Assembly: GCA_035651995.1 (NCBI GenBank) | Contig: DASRER010000028.1 | Location: forward strand, 62,001-126,000 | DNA from: Terriglobales bacterium | GTDB lineage: Bacteria; Acidobacteriota; Terriglobia; Terriglobales; Acidobacteriaceae | DNA length: 64,000 bases | Reading direction: 5' to 3' | Shown here: positions 15,621 through 42,381 of the stretch, in pieces | How positions within the stretch are numbered: position 1 is the first letter of the stretch | Layout of the letters: each line of letters begins with the position of its first letter | The notes under the pieces: generated by a model | The model's input: only the letters and a program-made list of their open reading frames with translations | What the model was told of the DNA's origin: nothing | Database searches by the model: none | Made by a program: the position numbers and the translations under genes

Positions 15621-16721
15621 CTACCCGCGCTCCATCGCCCTCTGGTAGAGAGCATGAAAATGATGCACGCACTTCTCCTGCTTCACGCTGAACCGCCCGC
15701 GCTGATAGCTCCGTGATCGCAGATTGCGCTGCACCTTCTCACAGATGCCGCCATCTTCCAGTTGGATTTCGTCGCTGAAGGCGACCGTCTTGGCCGGCGT
15801 CTCCGTCTGCAGCGCGGACTCGGGAAAATACCACTCGAAGACGGCCACGCACTTTTCCGGCCCGAGCGGCAGCACGATGTTCACCGAGACGTTGTCCGGA
15901 TAGCAGTTCAGCATCCAGTTGGGAAAGATCCAGAAGTACTCCGCCGTCTGTCCCGCCTGCGCCGCGTCGTAGCGCCGCGACTCGCTTCCCTTCTCTGGCG
16001 GACGAATCGGACTCCACTGCCGCGAGTATGTCGCGGCCGTCTCGGCGCGGTACGCCGAGTAGTCCAGCTCGCGGTTCAGACTGGGATGCACGCTCGGCAG
16101 GTGATACCCCTCGAGAAAATTGTCGATATACGTCTTCCAGTTGCACTCCATCACGTATTCACGCCGTTCGTGCAGCCTCATGCGCTCCAGGCCAAACTTC
16201 TCCGCCTGCGCCGGCAGCTCGCCCAGCCACTTCCGCAAATCCGGCGCGCCGCCATCCAGGTTTACGAACACCAGGCCCGACCACTCGGCCGCCTTGATCG
16301 GCGTGAGGCCGAACTTCTCGGGCGCGAAGTCCTCCACGCCTTCCATCTCCGGCGCGGTGATCAGGCGTCCGTCGAGGCCGTACGTCCAGCCGTGATAGCC
16401 GCAGCGAAAGACCTTCCTTGAGCCGCAGCCTTCCGCCGGCGGACCGGCGCGATGCCGGCACACGTTGTAGAAGCCGCGCAGATACTTGTCCGAGCCGCGC
16501 ACCACCAGCAGCGGCTCGCCCGCAACTTCCGTGGTGAAATAGTCGCCCGCATTGCGCACCTGCTCGCTGCGTCCGGCCAGTTGCCAGGTTCGCGCGAAAA
16601 TTTTTTCTTTCTCGGCGGCGAGCACGGCCGGATCGGTGTAAAGATTGGAAGGCAGCGTCCACGAGCGGGCCACGTCGCCGTGCACGCCGGCATCGGACTT
16701 GATCAGGCGCGGTTCAGACAC
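15621..16721 (-). CDS. Rieske non-heme iron oxygenase, alpha-subunit type
   Basis: 366-residue cytoplasmic aromatic-ring-hydroxylating-type oxygenase. The Rieske 2Fe-2S motif is Cys88-x-His90 in NVCRHR and Cys107-x-x-His110 in RCGYHGWTYG. The mononuclear iron site follows in DNFLEGYHLPSVHP with His207 and His212, and a late Asp is expected as third ligand. The Rieske loop is GPPAEGCGS, near the common GAPLxxG pattern. No ferredoxin reductase or beta-subunit gene is nearby, so electrons must come from elsewhere. The frame is open upstream but family sequence begins at about the GTG 16721; a TTG two codons earlier is possible. The substrate is unknown. Confidence 0.85.
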   Translation of the reverse strand: MSEPRLIKSDAGVHGDVARSWTLPSNLYTDPAVLAAEKEKIFARTWQLAGRSEQVRNAGDYFTTEVAGEPLLVVRGSDKYLRGFYNVCRHRAGPPAEGCGSRKVFRCGYHGWTYGLDGRLITAPEMEGVEDFAPEKFGLTPIKAAEWSGLVFVNLDGGAPDLRKWLGELPAQAEKFGLERMRLHERREYVMECNWKTYIDNFLEGYHLPSVHPSLNRELDYSAYRAETAATYSRQWSPIRPPEKGSESRRYDAAQAGQTAEYFWIFPNWMLNCYPDNVSVNIVLPLGPEKCVAVFEWYFPESALQTETPAKTVAFSDEIQLEDGGICEKVQRNLRSRSYQRGRFSVKQEKCVHHFHALYQRAMERG

Positions 16722-37538: not shown

Positions 37539-38198
37539 CTACTGCGGGGCGCGGCGGGCCTTGAGGTCGGCGAGGAGGCGGTCGATTTCCTGCTCGCGCT
37601 CGAGGCGGGCGAACTTGTCGTCAATGTTGTCGCCCAGCAGTTCGGCGTGGGCCTGCGCGACCGCTTCCTGCTTCAGGACCTTGTGCTTCATGCGGTCAAA
37701 GGTTGAGCCTTTGTCCTCGGTGGCGGCCTGCTGCGCCTGGTTGGCGCGCGTGGCCACGCGCGAGCGCCGGTGCTGCGCGATGAGCAGCTCGCTCTTGCCG
37801 CGGGCTTCGGCGAGTTTCTGCTCGAGCTTGGAGAGCGCCGACTTCAGGCCCTCGACCTGGGCCTTCTGGTCGGCGATCTGCTCGCGGAAGCTCTCCTGCA
37901 TCTGCTGGTAGCTCATGGAGCGCTGGAGGGCGGCGCGGGCGAGGTCGTCCTGTTTTTTGTCGACGGCGAGCTCGGCGCGGCGCATCCAGTCGGCGGCTCG
38001 CTCCTCGTTTTCTTTGGCTTTTTTCTCCAGCAGGTGCTGGTCGGCGATGGCGATGGCAACCTGCGTCTTGACCTGGAGGAGCTGGTTCTGCATGTCGAGG
38101 ATGACCTGCTTGATCATCTTCTCGGGGTCTTCGGCCTTGTCGATCAGGTCGTTGAGATTGGCGCGGACAAGAGTTGATACGCGTTCAAGGAGTGCCAT
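37539..38198 (-). CDS. pspA: Phage shock protein A (PspA/IM30 family)
   Basis: 219-residue PspA/IM30 protein, an ESCRT-III-like membrane-repair and stress protein. It begins MALLERVSTLVRANLNDLID, a typical amphipathic helix, then a long coiled coil (PEKMIKQVILDMQNQLLQVK, ADQHLLEKKAKENEERAADW, FREQIADQKAQVEGLKSALS) and the short helix-rich end. Length is that of classical PspA (about 220). It probably acts at the inner face of the cytoplasmic membrane. No PspF/B/C is nearby; instead it follows flotillin, NfeD and SdpI-like genes on the same strand. GAGG lies before the ATG. Confidence 0.9.
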   Translation of the reverse strand: MALLERVSTLVRANLNDLIDKAEDPEKMIKQVILDMQNQLLQVKTQVAIAIADQHLLEKKAKENEERAADWMRRAELAVDKKQDDLARAALQRSMSYQQMQESFREQIADQKAQVEGLKSALSKLEQKLAEARGKSELLIAQHRRSRVATRANQAQQAATEDKGSTFDRMKHKVLKQEAVAQAHAELLGDNIDDKFARLEREQEIDRLLADLKARRAPQ

Positions 38199-38321: not shown

Positions 38322-38975
38322 TCATAGCTGGCCGCGGTGTTCGAGGCGTTTGTAATAAACGAGCGAATGGACGATGGGAACGCCGCCGGCAAGCATGAGC
38401 ACGACGAGCGGCGCCCAGAAGTTGCGGATGATGAGCGTGAGCAGCAGGCCCACGATGCCGCCGGCGATGAACCATTTGGCGGCGAAGACATGGGTGGCGT
38501 GCCACACCTCCTCGCTGGCCAGAGTCCAGGGTGTGCGAATGCCGACGTAGAAGTTGCGGCGCAGGCGCGGCAGGAAGGCGCCGAGCACGGCGAAGAGTCC
38601 GCAAACGGCCCCGGTGATTGCCATGTTCATGTTGAGGTGACGGCCGGTGGCAGCGGTGAGGATGAGCGCGTGAATCGCCGCGAGAAAGCCGAGGACGACG
38701 AGCAGCACCTGGAGGTAAACGGCGCCGTTGGCGCGTCCGTTGACTTCGAACTTGCGCGGCGAGAGCCAGGGCAGCGCAGCGAAGAGCAGCGTCATGGCGG
38801 CCATGATGGCGGGCACGAAGAGCGCGGCGAAGAGCCGGCTGCCGTATCCGTTGACTTGACCCTGCGCGTTCCAATGCATGGGCACCCGCTCGGGCAGCGA
38901 GGAATAGAGCACGACGCTGGAGGCGAGGGCGACGAGGACGAAAACGGCGGCGAAGACGTAGTAACGCGTTTTCAT
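38322..38975 (-). CDS. SdpI-like membrane protein (DUF1648 plus SdpI domains)
   Basis: 217-residue membrane protein with about six membrane segments. The N-terminal DUF1648 part reads YYVFAAVFVLVALASSVVLY and SSLPERVPMHWNAQGQVNGYG. The C-terminal SdpI part includes RRNFYVGIRTPWTLASEEVW and HATHVFAAKWF. In Bacillus SdpI gives immunity to the SdpC toxin and signals to SdpR; here no sdpC is seen, so a general envelope role is inferred. The ATG overlaps the stop of the small upstream gene in an ATGA junction. Confidence 0.87.
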   Translation of the reverse strand: MKTRYYVFAAVFVLVALASSVVLYSSLPERVPMHWNAQGQVNGYGSRLFAALFVPAIMAAMTLLFAALPWLSPRKFEVNGRANGAVYLQVLLVVLGFLAAIHALILTAATGRHLNMNMAITGAVCGLFAVLGAFLPRLRRNFYVGIRTPWTLASEEVWHATHVFAAKWFIAGGIVGLLLTLIIRNFWAPLVVLMLAGGVPIVHSLVYYKRLEHRGQL

Positions 38976-39142
38976 GATTGACGTCCTTCCACGAACCACT
39001 TCAGGTAGAGCACGCCGGCGGCGTTGGTGATGAGCATGGCGGCGATGGCGGCCAGCGCCGGGACCTTGCCGGCGAACATGCCCACCGCGGCGGCGACGGC
39101 GACGGCCAGGATGAGGATTCGGATTGTGAGTTTGGTGGTCAT
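38972..39142 (-). CDS. Small two-segment membrane protein
   Basis: 56-residue hydrophobic protein, MTTKLTIRILILAVAVAAAV then GKVPALAAIAAMLITNAAGV and LYLKWFVEGRQS, fitting two membrane helices. It is coupled by a four-base ATGA overlap to the SdpI-like gene, so it is probably a partner subunit. The upstream in-frame extension consists of repeats and is not used. No named family is recognised. Confidence 0.7.
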   Translation of the reverse strand: MTTKLTIRILILAVAVAAAVGMFAGKVPALAAIAAMLITNAAGVLYLKWFVEGRQS

Positions 39143-39331: not shown

Positions 39332-40774
39332 TCACGCGCCTGCCTTCGCGCCGCCGCTGTCGCCGGGGCGCGGACCCTTGTCGCCGATCTGGCGGACTTT
39401 GCCGAGGAGTTCGGACATCTGCATGCCGGAAAGGGCCTCGAACAGGGCCGGGACCTGCGCGGCGATCCTGGCCATGTCGCCGGTGATCTTGTGAGCGCCG
39501 GCGGCGCCGTTTTCGCCGGTGGAGACGATGGTGATCTTGTCCACGTTGGCGAGCGGCGACGACATGGCGCGCACGACCTCGGGCAAGCCGGTGATGAGCT
39601 TGTCCACGACGGCGGCCTGGTTGTACTCCTGGTAGGCCTCGGCCTTGACGTTCATCGCCCTGGCTTCGGCTTCGCCCTTCTTGAAGATGATTTCGGCTTC
39701 GGCCTCGCCGGTGGCGCGGGTGGCGCTGGCGCGGCCTTCGGCTTCGATCATGAGGCGCTGCTTTTCAGCGGCGGCGAGCTGCTCGATGCGCGCGCGCTCG
39801 ACCTCGGCGGCCTTGAGGACGCTGGCGATCAGCTCCTTTTCGTGGCGCAGGATTTCCGCTTCCTGCACCTTGATCTGCTGCTCTTTCTCCACCTGCTGCA
39901 CGCGGACGGCTTCGGCGGTGACCTGCTGCTGCATGATGTTGGCCTGGATCTCGTAGGCCTTGTCGGCCGTGGCCTGCTTTTTCCTGGTGGCTTCCTGGTA
40001 TTCGGCGCGATTGATCTCCAAATCGCGCTGCGCCTGGGCCTGCTTGGACATGGAAATGGTTTCGGCGAGGACGCGCTCCTGGTCGGCTTGCGCCTTGGCG
40101 ATGGCGGCTTCGCGCTGGGCGAGAGCGCGCCTGATGGCGGTGTCGCGCTCGGCTTCGGCGGCGGCGACGTCGGCGTCGCGCTTGATGCGGGCGACGTCGG
40201 GGCGTCCCATGTTGGTGATGTACTCGTTCTTGTCGCGGACCTCCTTAATGGTGAAGGAAACGACCTCGAGGCCCATCTTGTTCATGTCGTCGGCGCAGGT
40301 GGAGCGCATGCGCTCGGCGACCATCTCGGGTTGCTTCACGATTTCTTCCACCGTGAGCTGGCCGATGATGCCGCGCAGGTGGCCTTCCATCACCAGGCGG
40401 ATGAGGCCTTCGCGCTCCTGCGGCGGCTTGGTGAGGAACTGCTCGGCCGCGGTGAGGATGGATTCCTTGTCGGACTTGACTTTTATTTGAGCGACGGCCT
40501 CGACGGTGACGGCCACGCCCTGGCGGGTGTACAGGTCCTGCTGCGGCGCGACGTCGAACGACATCAGTTCGAGCGAGAGGTCGCGGCAGGTCTCAACCAT
40601 GGGGAAGATGACCGTGCCGCCACCCGACACGATGCGCGTGCCGCGAAATCCGTAGACGACCAGCGCCTGGTGCGGGCCGGCTTTGCGGTAGAGCTGCGTG
40701 AGCACGATCATCAGCGTGAACGTGCCGAAGATCAGCAGCGCGATGACGGTCCATGCTCCAGTTGTGAGTTCCAT
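39332..40774 (-). CDS. Flotillin-like SPFH/band-7 protein
   Basis: 480-residue flotillin. One N-terminal membrane segment (about residues 7-27), an SPFH domain (GPHQALVVYGFRGTRIVSGG, then MSFDVAPQQDLYTRQGVAVT) and a long Glu/Ala-rich coiled-coil flotillin domain (AAEAERDTAIRRALAQREAA, EAEAEIIFKKGEAEARAM). The C-terminal LPEVVRAMSSPLANVDKITI is typical. Flotillins scaffold membrane microdomains and in Bacillus (YuaG/FloT) pair with the NfeD protein YuaF, as the next upstream gene here does. GGAGGA precedes the ATG. Confidence 0.92.
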   Translation of the reverse strand: MELTTGAWTVIALLIFGTFTLMIVLTQLYRKAGPHQALVVYGFRGTRIVSGGGTVIFPMVETCRDLSLELMSFDVAPQQDLYTRQGVAVTVEAVAQIKVKSDKESILTAAEQFLTKPPQEREGLIRLVMEGHLRGIIGQLTVEEIVKQPEMVAERMRSTCADDMNKMGLEVVSFTIKEVRDKNEYITNMGRPDVARIKRDADVAAAEAERDTAIRRALAQREAAIAKAQADQERVLAETISMSKQAQAQRDLEINRAEYQEATRKKQATADKAYEIQANIMQQQVTAEAVRVQQVEKEQQIKVQEAEILRHEKELIASVLKAAEVERARIEQLAAAEKQRLMIEAEGRASATRATGEAEAEIIFKKGEAEARAMNVKAEAYQEYNQAAVVDKLITGLPEVVRAMSSPLANVDKITIVSTGENGAAGAHKITGDMARIAAQVPALFEALSGMQMSELLGKVRQIGDKGPRPGDSGGAKAGA

Positions 40775-40972: not shown

Positions 40973-41635
40973 TCATAGATCCTTCTTCTCTGGCGCGGCG
41001 CGGTCGAAGGCGTGTTCGCCGGCCAGTTCTTCCCAGCGGCGGACGTAGGCCAGGCCGCGCTCGTAGCGGGTAATCACGACTTCAGTTCCCTTGGGGATGG
41101 CGGCGCCGTCGTCGCTGCGGGCGCCGGAGACGCGGCGCGTGCCGGCCTGGGAGAAGATGATCTCGCCGGTGCCTCCGCCTTCGCGGATGGGCACGTTGAC
41201 GGTGCCGAGCACGCCGATGCGGTCGTAGTCGGCGGCGTCCAAGGAGCGCTCGCAGGAGAGCAGCTTAACCAGGAACCAGAAGATGATCGAGGCGCCTACC
41301 AATCCGCCGAGAACGGCGGCGATGAAGCCGAAGACGACCTGCACGTGTCCGTAGTGGGTAAGCAGGTATCCGGCGCCGCCGAACCAGGCGAGGAAGGCGA
41401 CGATCGTCGAAAAATTCAGGAACGGAACCTCGGTTTCGGCGTGCGCGCCGTGGGCGTGGACACCCGTGGCGTGCGCATGCACGCCGCCGACGTGCGCATG
41501 GCCGTTACCGAAATGCGGCAGGCGCCAGCCGGCGGGAAGGTGCAGGTGGAACTGCATGGCGCCGAGCAGGAACGACAGCATGACCAGCGCGAAGCCGACG
41601 ATGAAACAGACGAGATAGAAGGAGGCGAAATTCAT
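40973..41635 (-). CDS. NfeD-like membrane protein with a histidine-rich loop
   Basis: 220-residue NfeD/YuaF-type protein: an N-terminal membrane segment, a loop, two or three further membrane segments (about 72-130) and a C-terminal OB fold (GVLGTVNVPIREGGGTGEII, EVVITRYERGLAYVRRW). The loop at about 41-65 is unusual: eight His in 25 residues with VHAHATGVHAHGAHAE repeats, a possible metal-binding site. It is coupled to the upstream XRE gene by ATGA and lies upstream of flotillin, the usual NfeD partner. Confidence 0.88.
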   Translation of the reverse strand: MNFASFYLVCFIVGFALVMLSFLLGAMQFHLHLPAGWRLPHFGNGHAHVGGVHAHATGVHAHGAHAETEVPFLNFSTIVAFLAWFGGAGYLLTHYGHVQVVFGFIAAVLGGLVGASIIFWFLVKLLSCERSLDAADYDRIGVLGTVNVPIREGGGTGEIIFSQAGTRRVSGARSDDGAAIPKGTEVVITRYERGLAYVRRWEELAGEHAFDRAAPEKKDL

Positions 41636-42135
41636 TGCGAGTCACCTTCCTTTTGTGGTTTCGCGCGGCGCTCCGGACGTAATACGTGCAACAAGCGGTC
41701 GACGAGCTCGGGGTTTTCCAGGATGGCGCCGAGCAGGACGATGCACTTGCGCGAATCTTGGTGGCGGGCGACGGCGAGGAGCGCCTGGCAGACTTCGGCG
41801 TCTTTGCGGAAGCGCTCGGCGCCGTTGATGAGCCACATGTCGAGCTTGTCTTCGATGGCGCGCAGGTCGGAGATGAGCTCGGTGTGGTAGCCCTCGGGGT
41901 CGCTCACCAGGTAGCCGGGGTGCACGTTGAAAAAACGCGCCAGCAGCGTGCGCGACTTGTTGGTGAGGTGCGGGCGCGCGCCGCTCTCGATTTGCGAGAG
42001 ATAGGACTGGCTGAGGCCCTCGCCGAGGTCGCGCTTGATGGCGCGCACGACCTCCTGCTGGGTCATCTCGCGGTCCATGCCGCGGAGCGTGCCCTCGACG
42101 TGGCGGAGGTAGCGGATTTTTTCGCCGAGGTTCAT
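41632..42135 (-). CDS. XRE-family transcriptional regulator
   Basis: 167-residue regulator with an N-terminal Cro/C1-type helix-turn-helix (about residues 4-60; MTQQEVVRAIKRDLGEGLSQ, SYLSQIESGARPH) and a C-terminal helical part of unknown ligand (ISDLRAIEDKLDMWLINGAE). The stop overlaps the NfeD start (ATGA), so it is the first gene of the NfeD-flotillin block and its probable regulator. A perfect 24-bp palindrome 77 bases upstream is a candidate autoregulatory operator. The ATG at 42135 fits the domain start. Confidence 0.88.
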   Translation of the reverse strand: MNLGEKIRYLRHVEGTLRGMDREMTQQEVVRAIKRDLGEGLSQSYLSQIESGARPHLTNKSRTLLARFFNVHPGYLVSDPEGYHTELISDLRAIEDKLDMWLINGAERFRKDAEVCQALLAVARHQDSRKCIVLLGAILENPELVDRLLHVLRPERRAKPQKEGDSQ

Positions 42136-42153
42136 GAGAATCGGCCGGTGGCC

Positions 42154-42200
42154 GTTGGCCCCGGTGGCACGTTGGCCCCGGTGGCACGTTGGCCCCGGTG
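42154..42200. repeat. 17-bp tandem repeat in the XRE gene leader
   Basis: The unit GTTGGCCCCGGTGGCAC occurs at 42154-42170 and 42171-42187 exactly, then 13 bases of a third copy (42188-42200). It lies between the palindrome and the XRE start codon, in the presumed 5' leader. Confidence 0.85.
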
Positions 42201-42211
42201 TCGCAATTACT

Positions 42212-42235
42212 AATTGCAATATTAATATTGCAATT
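42212..42235. promoter_or_regulatory. Perfect 24-bp AT-rich palindrome, candidate XRE operator
   Basis: Half-site AATTGCAATATT meets its exact reverse complement, giving 24 matched bases with no spacer, inside a GC-rich genome. It lies between the divergent XRE and ArsR genes, 77 bases from the XRE start and about 147 from the ArsR start. Binding by the XRE protein is an inference from position. Confidence 0.65.
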
Positions 42236-42321
42236 TGTGAATCACGTCAAGACCTGGATTTCCCTTCCCTGCTAGCGGTTACCGACGACCTTTGGAAAAA
42301 GACCCGGCGCGCGCGAGGTGC

Positions 42322-42366
42322 TTGACAGAACCGGCCGCAGCGTATATAACCGTTACGTTATATAAT
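42322..42366 (+). promoter_or_regulatory. ArsR-SRPBCC promoter with overlapping inverted repeat
   Basis: TTGACA (42322-42327), a 17-base spacer and TATAAC (42345-42350). The -10 is part of an inverted repeat TATATAAC (42343-42350), CGTTAC, GTTATATA (42357-42364), an arrangement typical of self-repressing ArsR regulators. Confidence 0.7.
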
Positions 42367-42381
42367 CTAGGAGTTATGCAC

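What the first reader, a model, noticed from the sequence alone, without database searches (positions are those of the whole stretch)
42212..42235. Perfect 24-bp AT-rich palindrome between divergent XRE and ArsR genes
Twelve-base half-sites AATTGCAATATT pair exactly in a GC-rich genome where such a sequence is very unlikely by chance. Its position 77 bases before the XRE start fits an operator for the membrane module.
Basis: partly seen in the sequence, partly recalled or inferred. Interest (0 to 1): 0.6.

Follow-up and report, generated by a model that had tools for sequence, protein, structure and literature searches.

The report
Self-control switch of membrane-stress operon
The palindrome is the middle of a conserved DNA switch, two side-by-side repressor-like sites wrapped around a promoter, that very probably lets a small regulator control its own membrane-stress (flotillin and PspA) operon in a group of Acidobacteria.

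Summary
The 24-bp palindrome at 42212-42235 is real. It is the core of a larger element, 42206-42241, minus strand: I read it as two 15-bp dyads (ATYGCAAWTTGCRAT), centres 21 bp apart, around the predicted XRE promoter (-35 TTGACG 42245-42250, 17 bp, -10 TATTAA 42222-42227). A profile trained without the window scores it 44.8 bits; the next unrelated place in the window scores 0.2. Of 91 distinct upstream regions of XRE orthologues (window included), 87 carry the standard form, two have one extra central base and two have it 400 and 557 nt upstream; 8 of 8 loci fetched later carry it. XRE–NfeD-like–flotillin–PspA is intact in 65 of 65 loci with enough sequence; no ArsR homologue appears in the other 92. 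Best explanation: an autorepressor operator bound by the XRE protein, nearest solved relative EspR. Binding and repression are inferred. The operon and an HTH gene in it were already noted in print (PMC9239133, passages); six searches found no description of the site.

The parts
42206..42241 (-). Full operator: two 15-bp dyads with centres 21 bp apart, built round the predicted -10 box of the XRE promoter
   Evidence: Profile trained without the window scores it 44.8 bits (minus) and 35.7 (plus); next unrelated place in the window 0.2
42212..42235 (.).
42227..42241 (-). Dyad 1 (TTCACAAATTGCAAT), between -35 and -10
   Evidence: one search lists it as ATYGCAAWTTGCRAT with 2 mismatches; family columns
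42206..42220 (-). Dyad 2 (ATTGCAATTAGTAAT), over the predicted transcription start
   Evidence: 2 mismatches; family columns
42245..42250 (-). Predicted -35 box TTGACG
   Evidence: sequence; of 83 loci with at least 4 of 6 matches to TTGACA, 44 have a 17-bp spacer and 14 have 18 (ties in that count were settled towards 17)
42222..42227 (-). Predicted -10 box TATTAA at the axis of the palindrome
   Evidence: sequence; 72 of 87 loci match TATAAT at 4 or 5 of 6 positions here
42153..42203 (.). 17-bp GC-rich tandem repeat, 3 copies, between operator and ATG; lengthens the leader in this genome
   Evidence: family D1 (third copy 88% identical)
41632..42135 (-). XRE-family regulator (167 aa), presumed binder; EspR-like HTH plus a C-terminal helical region without a family hit
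   Evidence: Pfam HTH_3 E 3.4e-4, 21 bits against a cut-off of 23; EspR E 7.8e-6; model and fold matches
40973..41635 (-). NfeD/YqiJ-like membrane protein (220 aa); this name is recalled, no library hit
   Evidence: homologue in 91 of 93 loci; no Pfam or NCBIfam match at E <= 0.001
39332..40774 (-). Flotillin (Band_7 + Flot)
   Evidence: Pfam hits; NCBIfam FloT below its cut-off; present in 65 of 65 long loci
38322..38984 (-). SdpI/DUF1648 membrane protein in this genome's operon
   Evidence: no homologue at E <= 1e-4 in 65 long loci
37539..38195 (-). PspA/IM30 protein
   Evidence: Pfam E 1.4e-39; NCBIfam PspA below its cut-off; present in 65 of 65 long loci

Best explanation
The palindrome is the centre of an autoregulatory operator for the XRE–NfeD-like–flotillin–(SdpI)–PspA operon. 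Two XRE dimers would bind side by side, one on each 15-bp dyad (half-sites ATYRC/GYRAT about 10 bp apart), with dyad centres 21 bp, about two helical turns, apart on one face of the DNA. The -10 box lies between the dyads, dyad 1 fills the -35/-10 spacer and dyad 2 covers the predicted transcription start, so occupancy would block sigma-70-type RNA polymerase. The operon would thus be held low by its own first product until an envelope signal, perhaps relayed by the operon's membrane proteins, releases it. Shown: the element, its conservation, its fixed relation to the operon and to promoter-like boxes, and that no second full site was found in the genome. Inferred: the promoter itself, that XRE is the binder, that binding represses, dimer geometry and cooperativity, and the inducing signal.
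For: Of 91 distinct upstream regions (window included), 87 score 32 bits or more; L070 and L090 carry it with one extra central base; L014 and L077 carry it 557 and 400 nt upstream at 47.9 and 48.2 bits. The window was left out of training and scores 44.8; the other 90 were in the training. Eight loci fetched later (the 8 of 11 phylum-sample matches not already held) score 36.0-47.3, one from another family of the phylum; two of the eight have the same site. Over all 93 loci, 1.49 Mb counting both strands, the only hits above 12 bits outside the 200 nt upstream of XRE are the displaced L014 and L077 sites. Information content falls to near zero upstream of the -35 region, so this is not general flank conservation. 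A -10 like TATAAT sits at the axis, and TTGACA is 17-18 bp away in 58 of 83 loci. In 41 genomes, 13 of 13 with XRE have a site and 0 of 28 without it have one at E <= 1e-3. In the own genome it is the only match up to E 10 among the 150 of 422 candidates scored. NfeD-like, flotillin and PspA genes follow in 65 of 65 long loci. In L070 and L090 both dyads stay intact while the gap between them grows by one base, which favours the dyad as the unit; the two may share one event. EspR, the nearest solved relative by profile, recognises TTTGC[TC][GA] (passages of PMC3315491), a core similar to the TTGC here.
Against: No binding or expression data. A flotillin of this type (E <= 1e-60) is absent from the same 28 genomes that lack XRE, so co-occurrence ties the site to the operon but cannot single out XRE as the binder; the genomes are also related, not independent. 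Overlap with the -10 fits repression, but an activator or dual regulator is not excluded. The promoter is predicted: in 19 of the 83 loci with a recognisable -35 the spacer to this -10 is 13, 14, 15, 19 or 20 bp, and 4 of 87 have no -35 with 4 or more matches. Dimer geometry is read from sequence only. Site-model searches scored at most 150 candidates per genome, so weak secondary sites may be missed. One XRE-less genome, G012, gave weak partial hits (best E 0.015), and G007 gave two extra weak places (E 0.007, 0.04). The EspR fold match is no better than a tie with other XRE folds.
Confidence: 0.86

Rival explanations
1. XRE binds the site but acts as an activator, or as a dual activator/repressor with two unequal sites, as restriction-modification controller (C) proteins do.
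For: Two adjacent dimer sites at a promoter are also the layout of C-protein operators (recalled); the C.AhdI fold is among the structural matches.
Against: Both dyads are similarly strong (half-sites H1-H4 match in 77, 78, 77 and 79 of 87 loci) and straddle the -10 and predicted start, a position that would block RNA polymerase; in most loci -35 and -10 both look good, so no activator seems needed.
Confidence: 0.08
2. A regulator other than XRE owns the site, for example the divergent ArsR protein or an unrelated global factor.
For: The site lies between the XRE and ArsR genes; no binding data; site and operon are absent together, so the binder is not identified genetically.
Against: ArsR has its own predicted promoter and a TATATAAC-N6-GTTATATA dyad (42343-42364) and no homologue in the held stretches of the other 92 loci. 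A global factor would have many sites; the own genome gave one match up to E 10, with 150 of 422 candidates scored.
Confidence: 0.06
3. The palindrome works as RNA or structural DNA (hairpin, attenuator, terminator).
For: It is a perfect inverted repeat that could form a hairpin.
Against: The predicted -10 lies inside it, so much of it is upstream of the predicted start and untranscribed; it is AT-rich without the usual GC stem and T run; conservation follows ten invariant dyad bases in 79 aligned sites. No fold of it was computed.
Confidence: 0.02
4. Chance palindrome without function.
For: In 5 of 200 dinucleotide shuffles of the window some perfect palindrome had an arm of 12 or more.
Against: Present in all 91 distinct upstream regions examined in some form and in all 8 loci fetched later.
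Confidence: 0.002

Closest known systems
EspR of Mycobacterium tuberculosis (XRE-family regulator / nucleoid-associated protein)
   Same: Nearest solved relative by sequence (profile positions 25-80, E 7.8e-6); first in Foldseek, though at E 2.8e-3, and first by VIA-align 2 (Z 10.6, rmsd 3.1, 91 residues), tied within 1 with TP901-1 CI at 9.8. It recognises a TTTGC core and binds its own promoter (passages of PMC3315491).
   Different: EspR binds hundreds of places; here one full site was found in the genome. The profile match covers the HTH only, and the controlled genes differ.
SinR, 434/P22 repressors, TP901-1 CI and DdrO (XRE repressors with promoter-overlapping operators; operator details recalled)
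   Same: HTH fold (Z 8.3-9.8) and the logic of two-fold operators over a promoter.
   Different: Different operator sequence (recalled); no protease or antagonist (IrrE, SinI) was looked for here.
Psp regulation by PspF (enhancer-binding activator) or ClgR (recalled)
   Same: Controls a pspA-containing envelope-stress operon.
   Different: Here a small XRE protein with an operator on a predicted sigma-70-type promoter.
Acidobacteriota PspA–band 7/FloT–NfeD–HTH neighbourhood of PMC9239133
   Same: Same kinds of genes; that paper says HTH regulators in these operons potentially regulate them (passages seen).
   Different: The words 'operator', 'palindrom' and 'binding motif' do not occur in its main text; supplements not seen.

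Membership tests
Autoregulatory operator of an XRE-family repressor | Two-fold symmetric site overlapping the regulator gene's own promoter | tested here: met
   Element with promoter-like -35/-10 boxes and spacing; the promoter is a prediction
Autoregulatory operator of an XRE-family repressor | Site conserved upstream of orthologous regulator genes | tested here: met
   91 of 91 distinct regions in some form (87 standard), 8 of 8 fetched later
Autoregulatory operator of an XRE-family repressor | Neighbouring gene encodes an XRE-fold HTH protein | tested here: met
   HTH_3 just under its cut-off; EspR by profile; XRE folds
Autoregulatory operator of an XRE-family repressor | The protein binds the site and lowers transcription | not testable with these tools
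   needs gel shift, footprint, reporter
EspR family | Sequence and fold similarity over the HTH domain | tested here: met
   profile; fold; no Foldseek match at E <= 0.001, and VIA-align ties with other XRE folds
EspR family | Same C-terminal dimerisation domain | tested here: inconclusive
   Profile match stops at position 80; one EspR chain aligns to model residue 143 with rmsd 4.6
EspR family | Many binding sites (nucleoid-associated protein) | tested here: inconclusive
   Own genome: one full site up to E 10, 150 of 422 candidates scored. Single dyads with up to 2 mismatches lie at 7 other places; six fetched ones overlap long open frames, weak evidence in GC-rich DNA, the seventh was only read as sequence. 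Degenerate sites cannot be excluded
Psp envelope-stress operon | Contains PspA/IM30 | tested here: met
   Pfam E 1.4e-39; 65 of 65 long loci
Psp envelope-stress operon | Induced by envelope stress | not testable with these tools
   needs expression data

The most novel reading that the evidence does not exclude
A group of Acidobacteria runs its flotillin/PspA envelope-stress response with a dedicated one-component switch, different from PspF and ClgR: an EspR-like XRE repressor whose conserved but unclassified C-terminal helical region senses the state of the NfeD–flotillin–PspA assembly, for instance by being titrated to the membrane, and so releases two dimers from a tandem operator.
Probability: 0.35. 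Interest if true: 0.62.

Novelty: new member of a known kind. Interest (0 to 1): 0.42.

Why it matters
It gives a defined, testable control element, with predicted promoter, start and dimer sites, for the flotillin/NfeD/PspA envelope-stress operon of part of a major soil phylum, where the paper found here only notes a neighbouring HTH gene. The strength of the motif means operons of this kind can be recognised from sequence, and the short DNA element can be used directly in gel-shift or reporter assays to look for the inducing signal.

Tried and rejected
Wider regulon: the full-site profile found no second site in the own genome up to E 10, with 150 of 422 candidates scored. The single-dyad pattern with up to 2 mismatches gave 9 places (control, the pattern read backwards: 1). 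Two are this operator; I took the other seven as chance. Six were fetched and overlap open frames of 110 or more codons, weak evidence in GC-rich DNA; one of them (L117) lies at what looks like a gene start. The seventh, window 15716-15730, was only read as sequence.

Genomes without XRE as a test that XRE is the binder: they also lack a flotillin of this type at E <= 1e-60, so the test ties the site to the operon and not to XRE. Counting matches up to E 0.1, 14 of 41 genomes have one: the 13 with XRE plus G012 (four weak partial hits, best E 0.015, 23 of 37 positions). G007 gave two further weak places (E 0.007 and 0.04). None was followed.

Phylum-wide element: rejected. In a sample of 199 genomes of the phylum only 11 have the XRE protein, 10 of them in the window's family.

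Strict leaderless mRNA: considered because the ATG abuts the operator in most loci. The predicted start lies about 10 nt before the ATG, so 'short leader' fits better; passages of PMC3160421 put leaderless -10 boxes about 12 bp from the start codon, here about 22.

Foldseek gave no match at E <= 0.001, the model has pTM 0.48, and the C-terminal region was not folded alone, so nothing is claimed about its fold.

Literature: six searches bore on operon or site; they found PMC9239133 for the operon and nothing on the site. Searches were about leaderless genes and EspR. The library holds open-licence papers only; of the three papers opened I saw passages, not whole texts.

Rows dropped before counts: of 93 loci (the window's own, L002, included), 2 with identical last 60 nt were dropped to give 91; near-identical sites were kept. 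79 of the 87 standard sites were given to the site alignment and 77 of 87 XRE proteins to the protein alignment. One search kept the best 80 of 243 relatives; the other 163 were not seen.

Full report
Observation. The 24-bp palindrome is at 42212-42235 exactly as described and is the longest perfect gapless palindrome in the window. Length alone is only moderately improbable: 5 of 200 dinucleotide shuffles of the window had an arm of 12 or more. The inner 20 bp occur at one place in the 3.66-Mb assembly with up to 3 mismatches.

Neighbourhood. On the minus strand run XRE (41632-42135), an NfeD/YqiJ-like membrane protein (name recalled; no library hit), flotillin, an SdpI/DUF1648 protein and PspA; on the plus strand ArsR and AHSA1. 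The ArsR gene has its own predicted promoter (TTGACA at 42322, 17 bp, TATAAC) overlapped by its own inverted repeat TATATAAC-N6-GTTATATA.

Orthologues. XRE orthologues were found in 13 of 41 related genomes, the own genome included. In the species collection 243 matches encoded a relative and the best 80 loci were kept; 3 of these 80 records (L028, L043, L094) carry proteobacterial names, the others acidobacterial ones. In an even sample of 199 genomes of the phylum only 11 have the protein, 10 in the window's family, so this is an element of part of the phylum.

Site. The 93 loci gave 91 distinct upstream regions, the window's own included. A profile trained on the other 90 finds a 36-bp near-palindrome in 87 of 91 at 32 bits or more; the window, left out of training, scores 44.8 against 0.2 for the next unrelated place in the window. 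L070 and L090 have the same arrangement with one extra central base (9.7 and 2.7 bits in the fixed-length profile), and L014 and L077 have it further upstream. In L014 a different open frame lies between site and XRE gene, consistent with the site being the operon promoter. Outside the 200 nt upstream of XRE, only those displaced sites exceed 12 bits in 1.49 Mb, counting both strands. Eight loci fetched afterwards, not used in training, all carry the site (36.0-47.3 bits; two share one sequence; one is from another family of the phylum, where the gene has an in-frame TGA).

Anatomy. Ten positions are invariant in 79 aligned sites and fall into two copies of the dyad ATYGCAAWTTGCRAT. Within a dyad the half-sites are about 10 bp apart; the dyad centres are 21 bp apart. 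In the two variants with an extra central base both dyads stay intact, which favours the dyad as the binding unit. So the reported palindrome is made of the inner half-site of each dyad plus the central -10. A TATAAT-like hexamer lies at the axis (4 or 5 of 6 matches in 72 of 87), and TTGACA precedes it by 17 or 18 bp in 58 of the 83 loci with a recognisable -35; the other 25 have 13-16, 19 or 20, and ties were settled towards 17. The ATG starts exactly 17 nt from the reference centre in 55 of 87 loci, giving a predicted leader of about 10 nt. In the window a 17-bp repeat in three copies (42153-42203) lies between site and ATG, and the distance is 87 nt.

Operon. In all 65 loci with at least 3.5 kb downstream of the XRE start, NfeD-like, flotillin and PspA homologues follow on the same strand. 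ArsR is found only in the window's own locus, and the SdpI gene in none of the 65 (tblastn E <= 1e-4). Across 41 genomes XRE, site (E <= 1e-3) and flotillin (E <= 1e-60) are present together in 13 and absent together in 28. The site model was built partly from these genomes, up to 150 candidates per genome were scored, and there are weak partial hits in G012 and two extra weak places in G007.

Regulator. XRE matches HTH_3 just under the Pfam cut-off. By profile its nearest solved relative is EspR (E 7.8e-6 over the HTH), also first by Foldseek, although without a match at E <= 0.001, and by VIA-align 2 (Z 10.6, rmsd 3.1, 91 residues), where other XRE repressors tie within 1. The model has mean pLDDT 83 and pTM 0.48. 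EspR recognises TTTGC[TC][GA] and binds its own promoter (passages of PMC3315491).

Mechanism. The two dyads straddle the -10 and cover spacer and predicted start, so autorepression is the simplest reading. Binding by XRE, repression, cooperativity and the inducing signal are inferred. Activation or dual control, and another binder, remain possible at low probability.

Known or new. The Acidobacteriota PspA/FloT/NfeD/HTH neighbourhood is in print (PMC9239133, passages). No description of the operator was found in six searches of an open-licence library. It is a new member of a known kind: an autoregulatory XRE operator, here strongly conserved and, as far as the searches reach, dedicated to one operon.

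Noticed in passing
42153-42203: Three head-to-tail copies of a 17-bp GC-rich unit sit between operator and XRE start; most orthologous loci have a far shorter leader.
   Followed up: partly
42322-42376: The divergent ArsR (SdpR-like) gene has its own promoter-like boxes overlapped by TATATAAC-N6-GTTATATA, probably its own operator.
   Followed up: partly
38322-38984: An SdpI/DUF1648 membrane protein lies between flotillin and PspA here and has no homologue in 65 related operons.
   Followed up: no
window 26000 and 62000: GC skew changes sign near 26 kb (negative to positive) and again near 62 kb.
   Followed up: no
L014, between operator and XRE gene: A different membrane-protein-like open frame (my reading of the translation) lies between the operator and the XRE gene.
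   Followed up: partly
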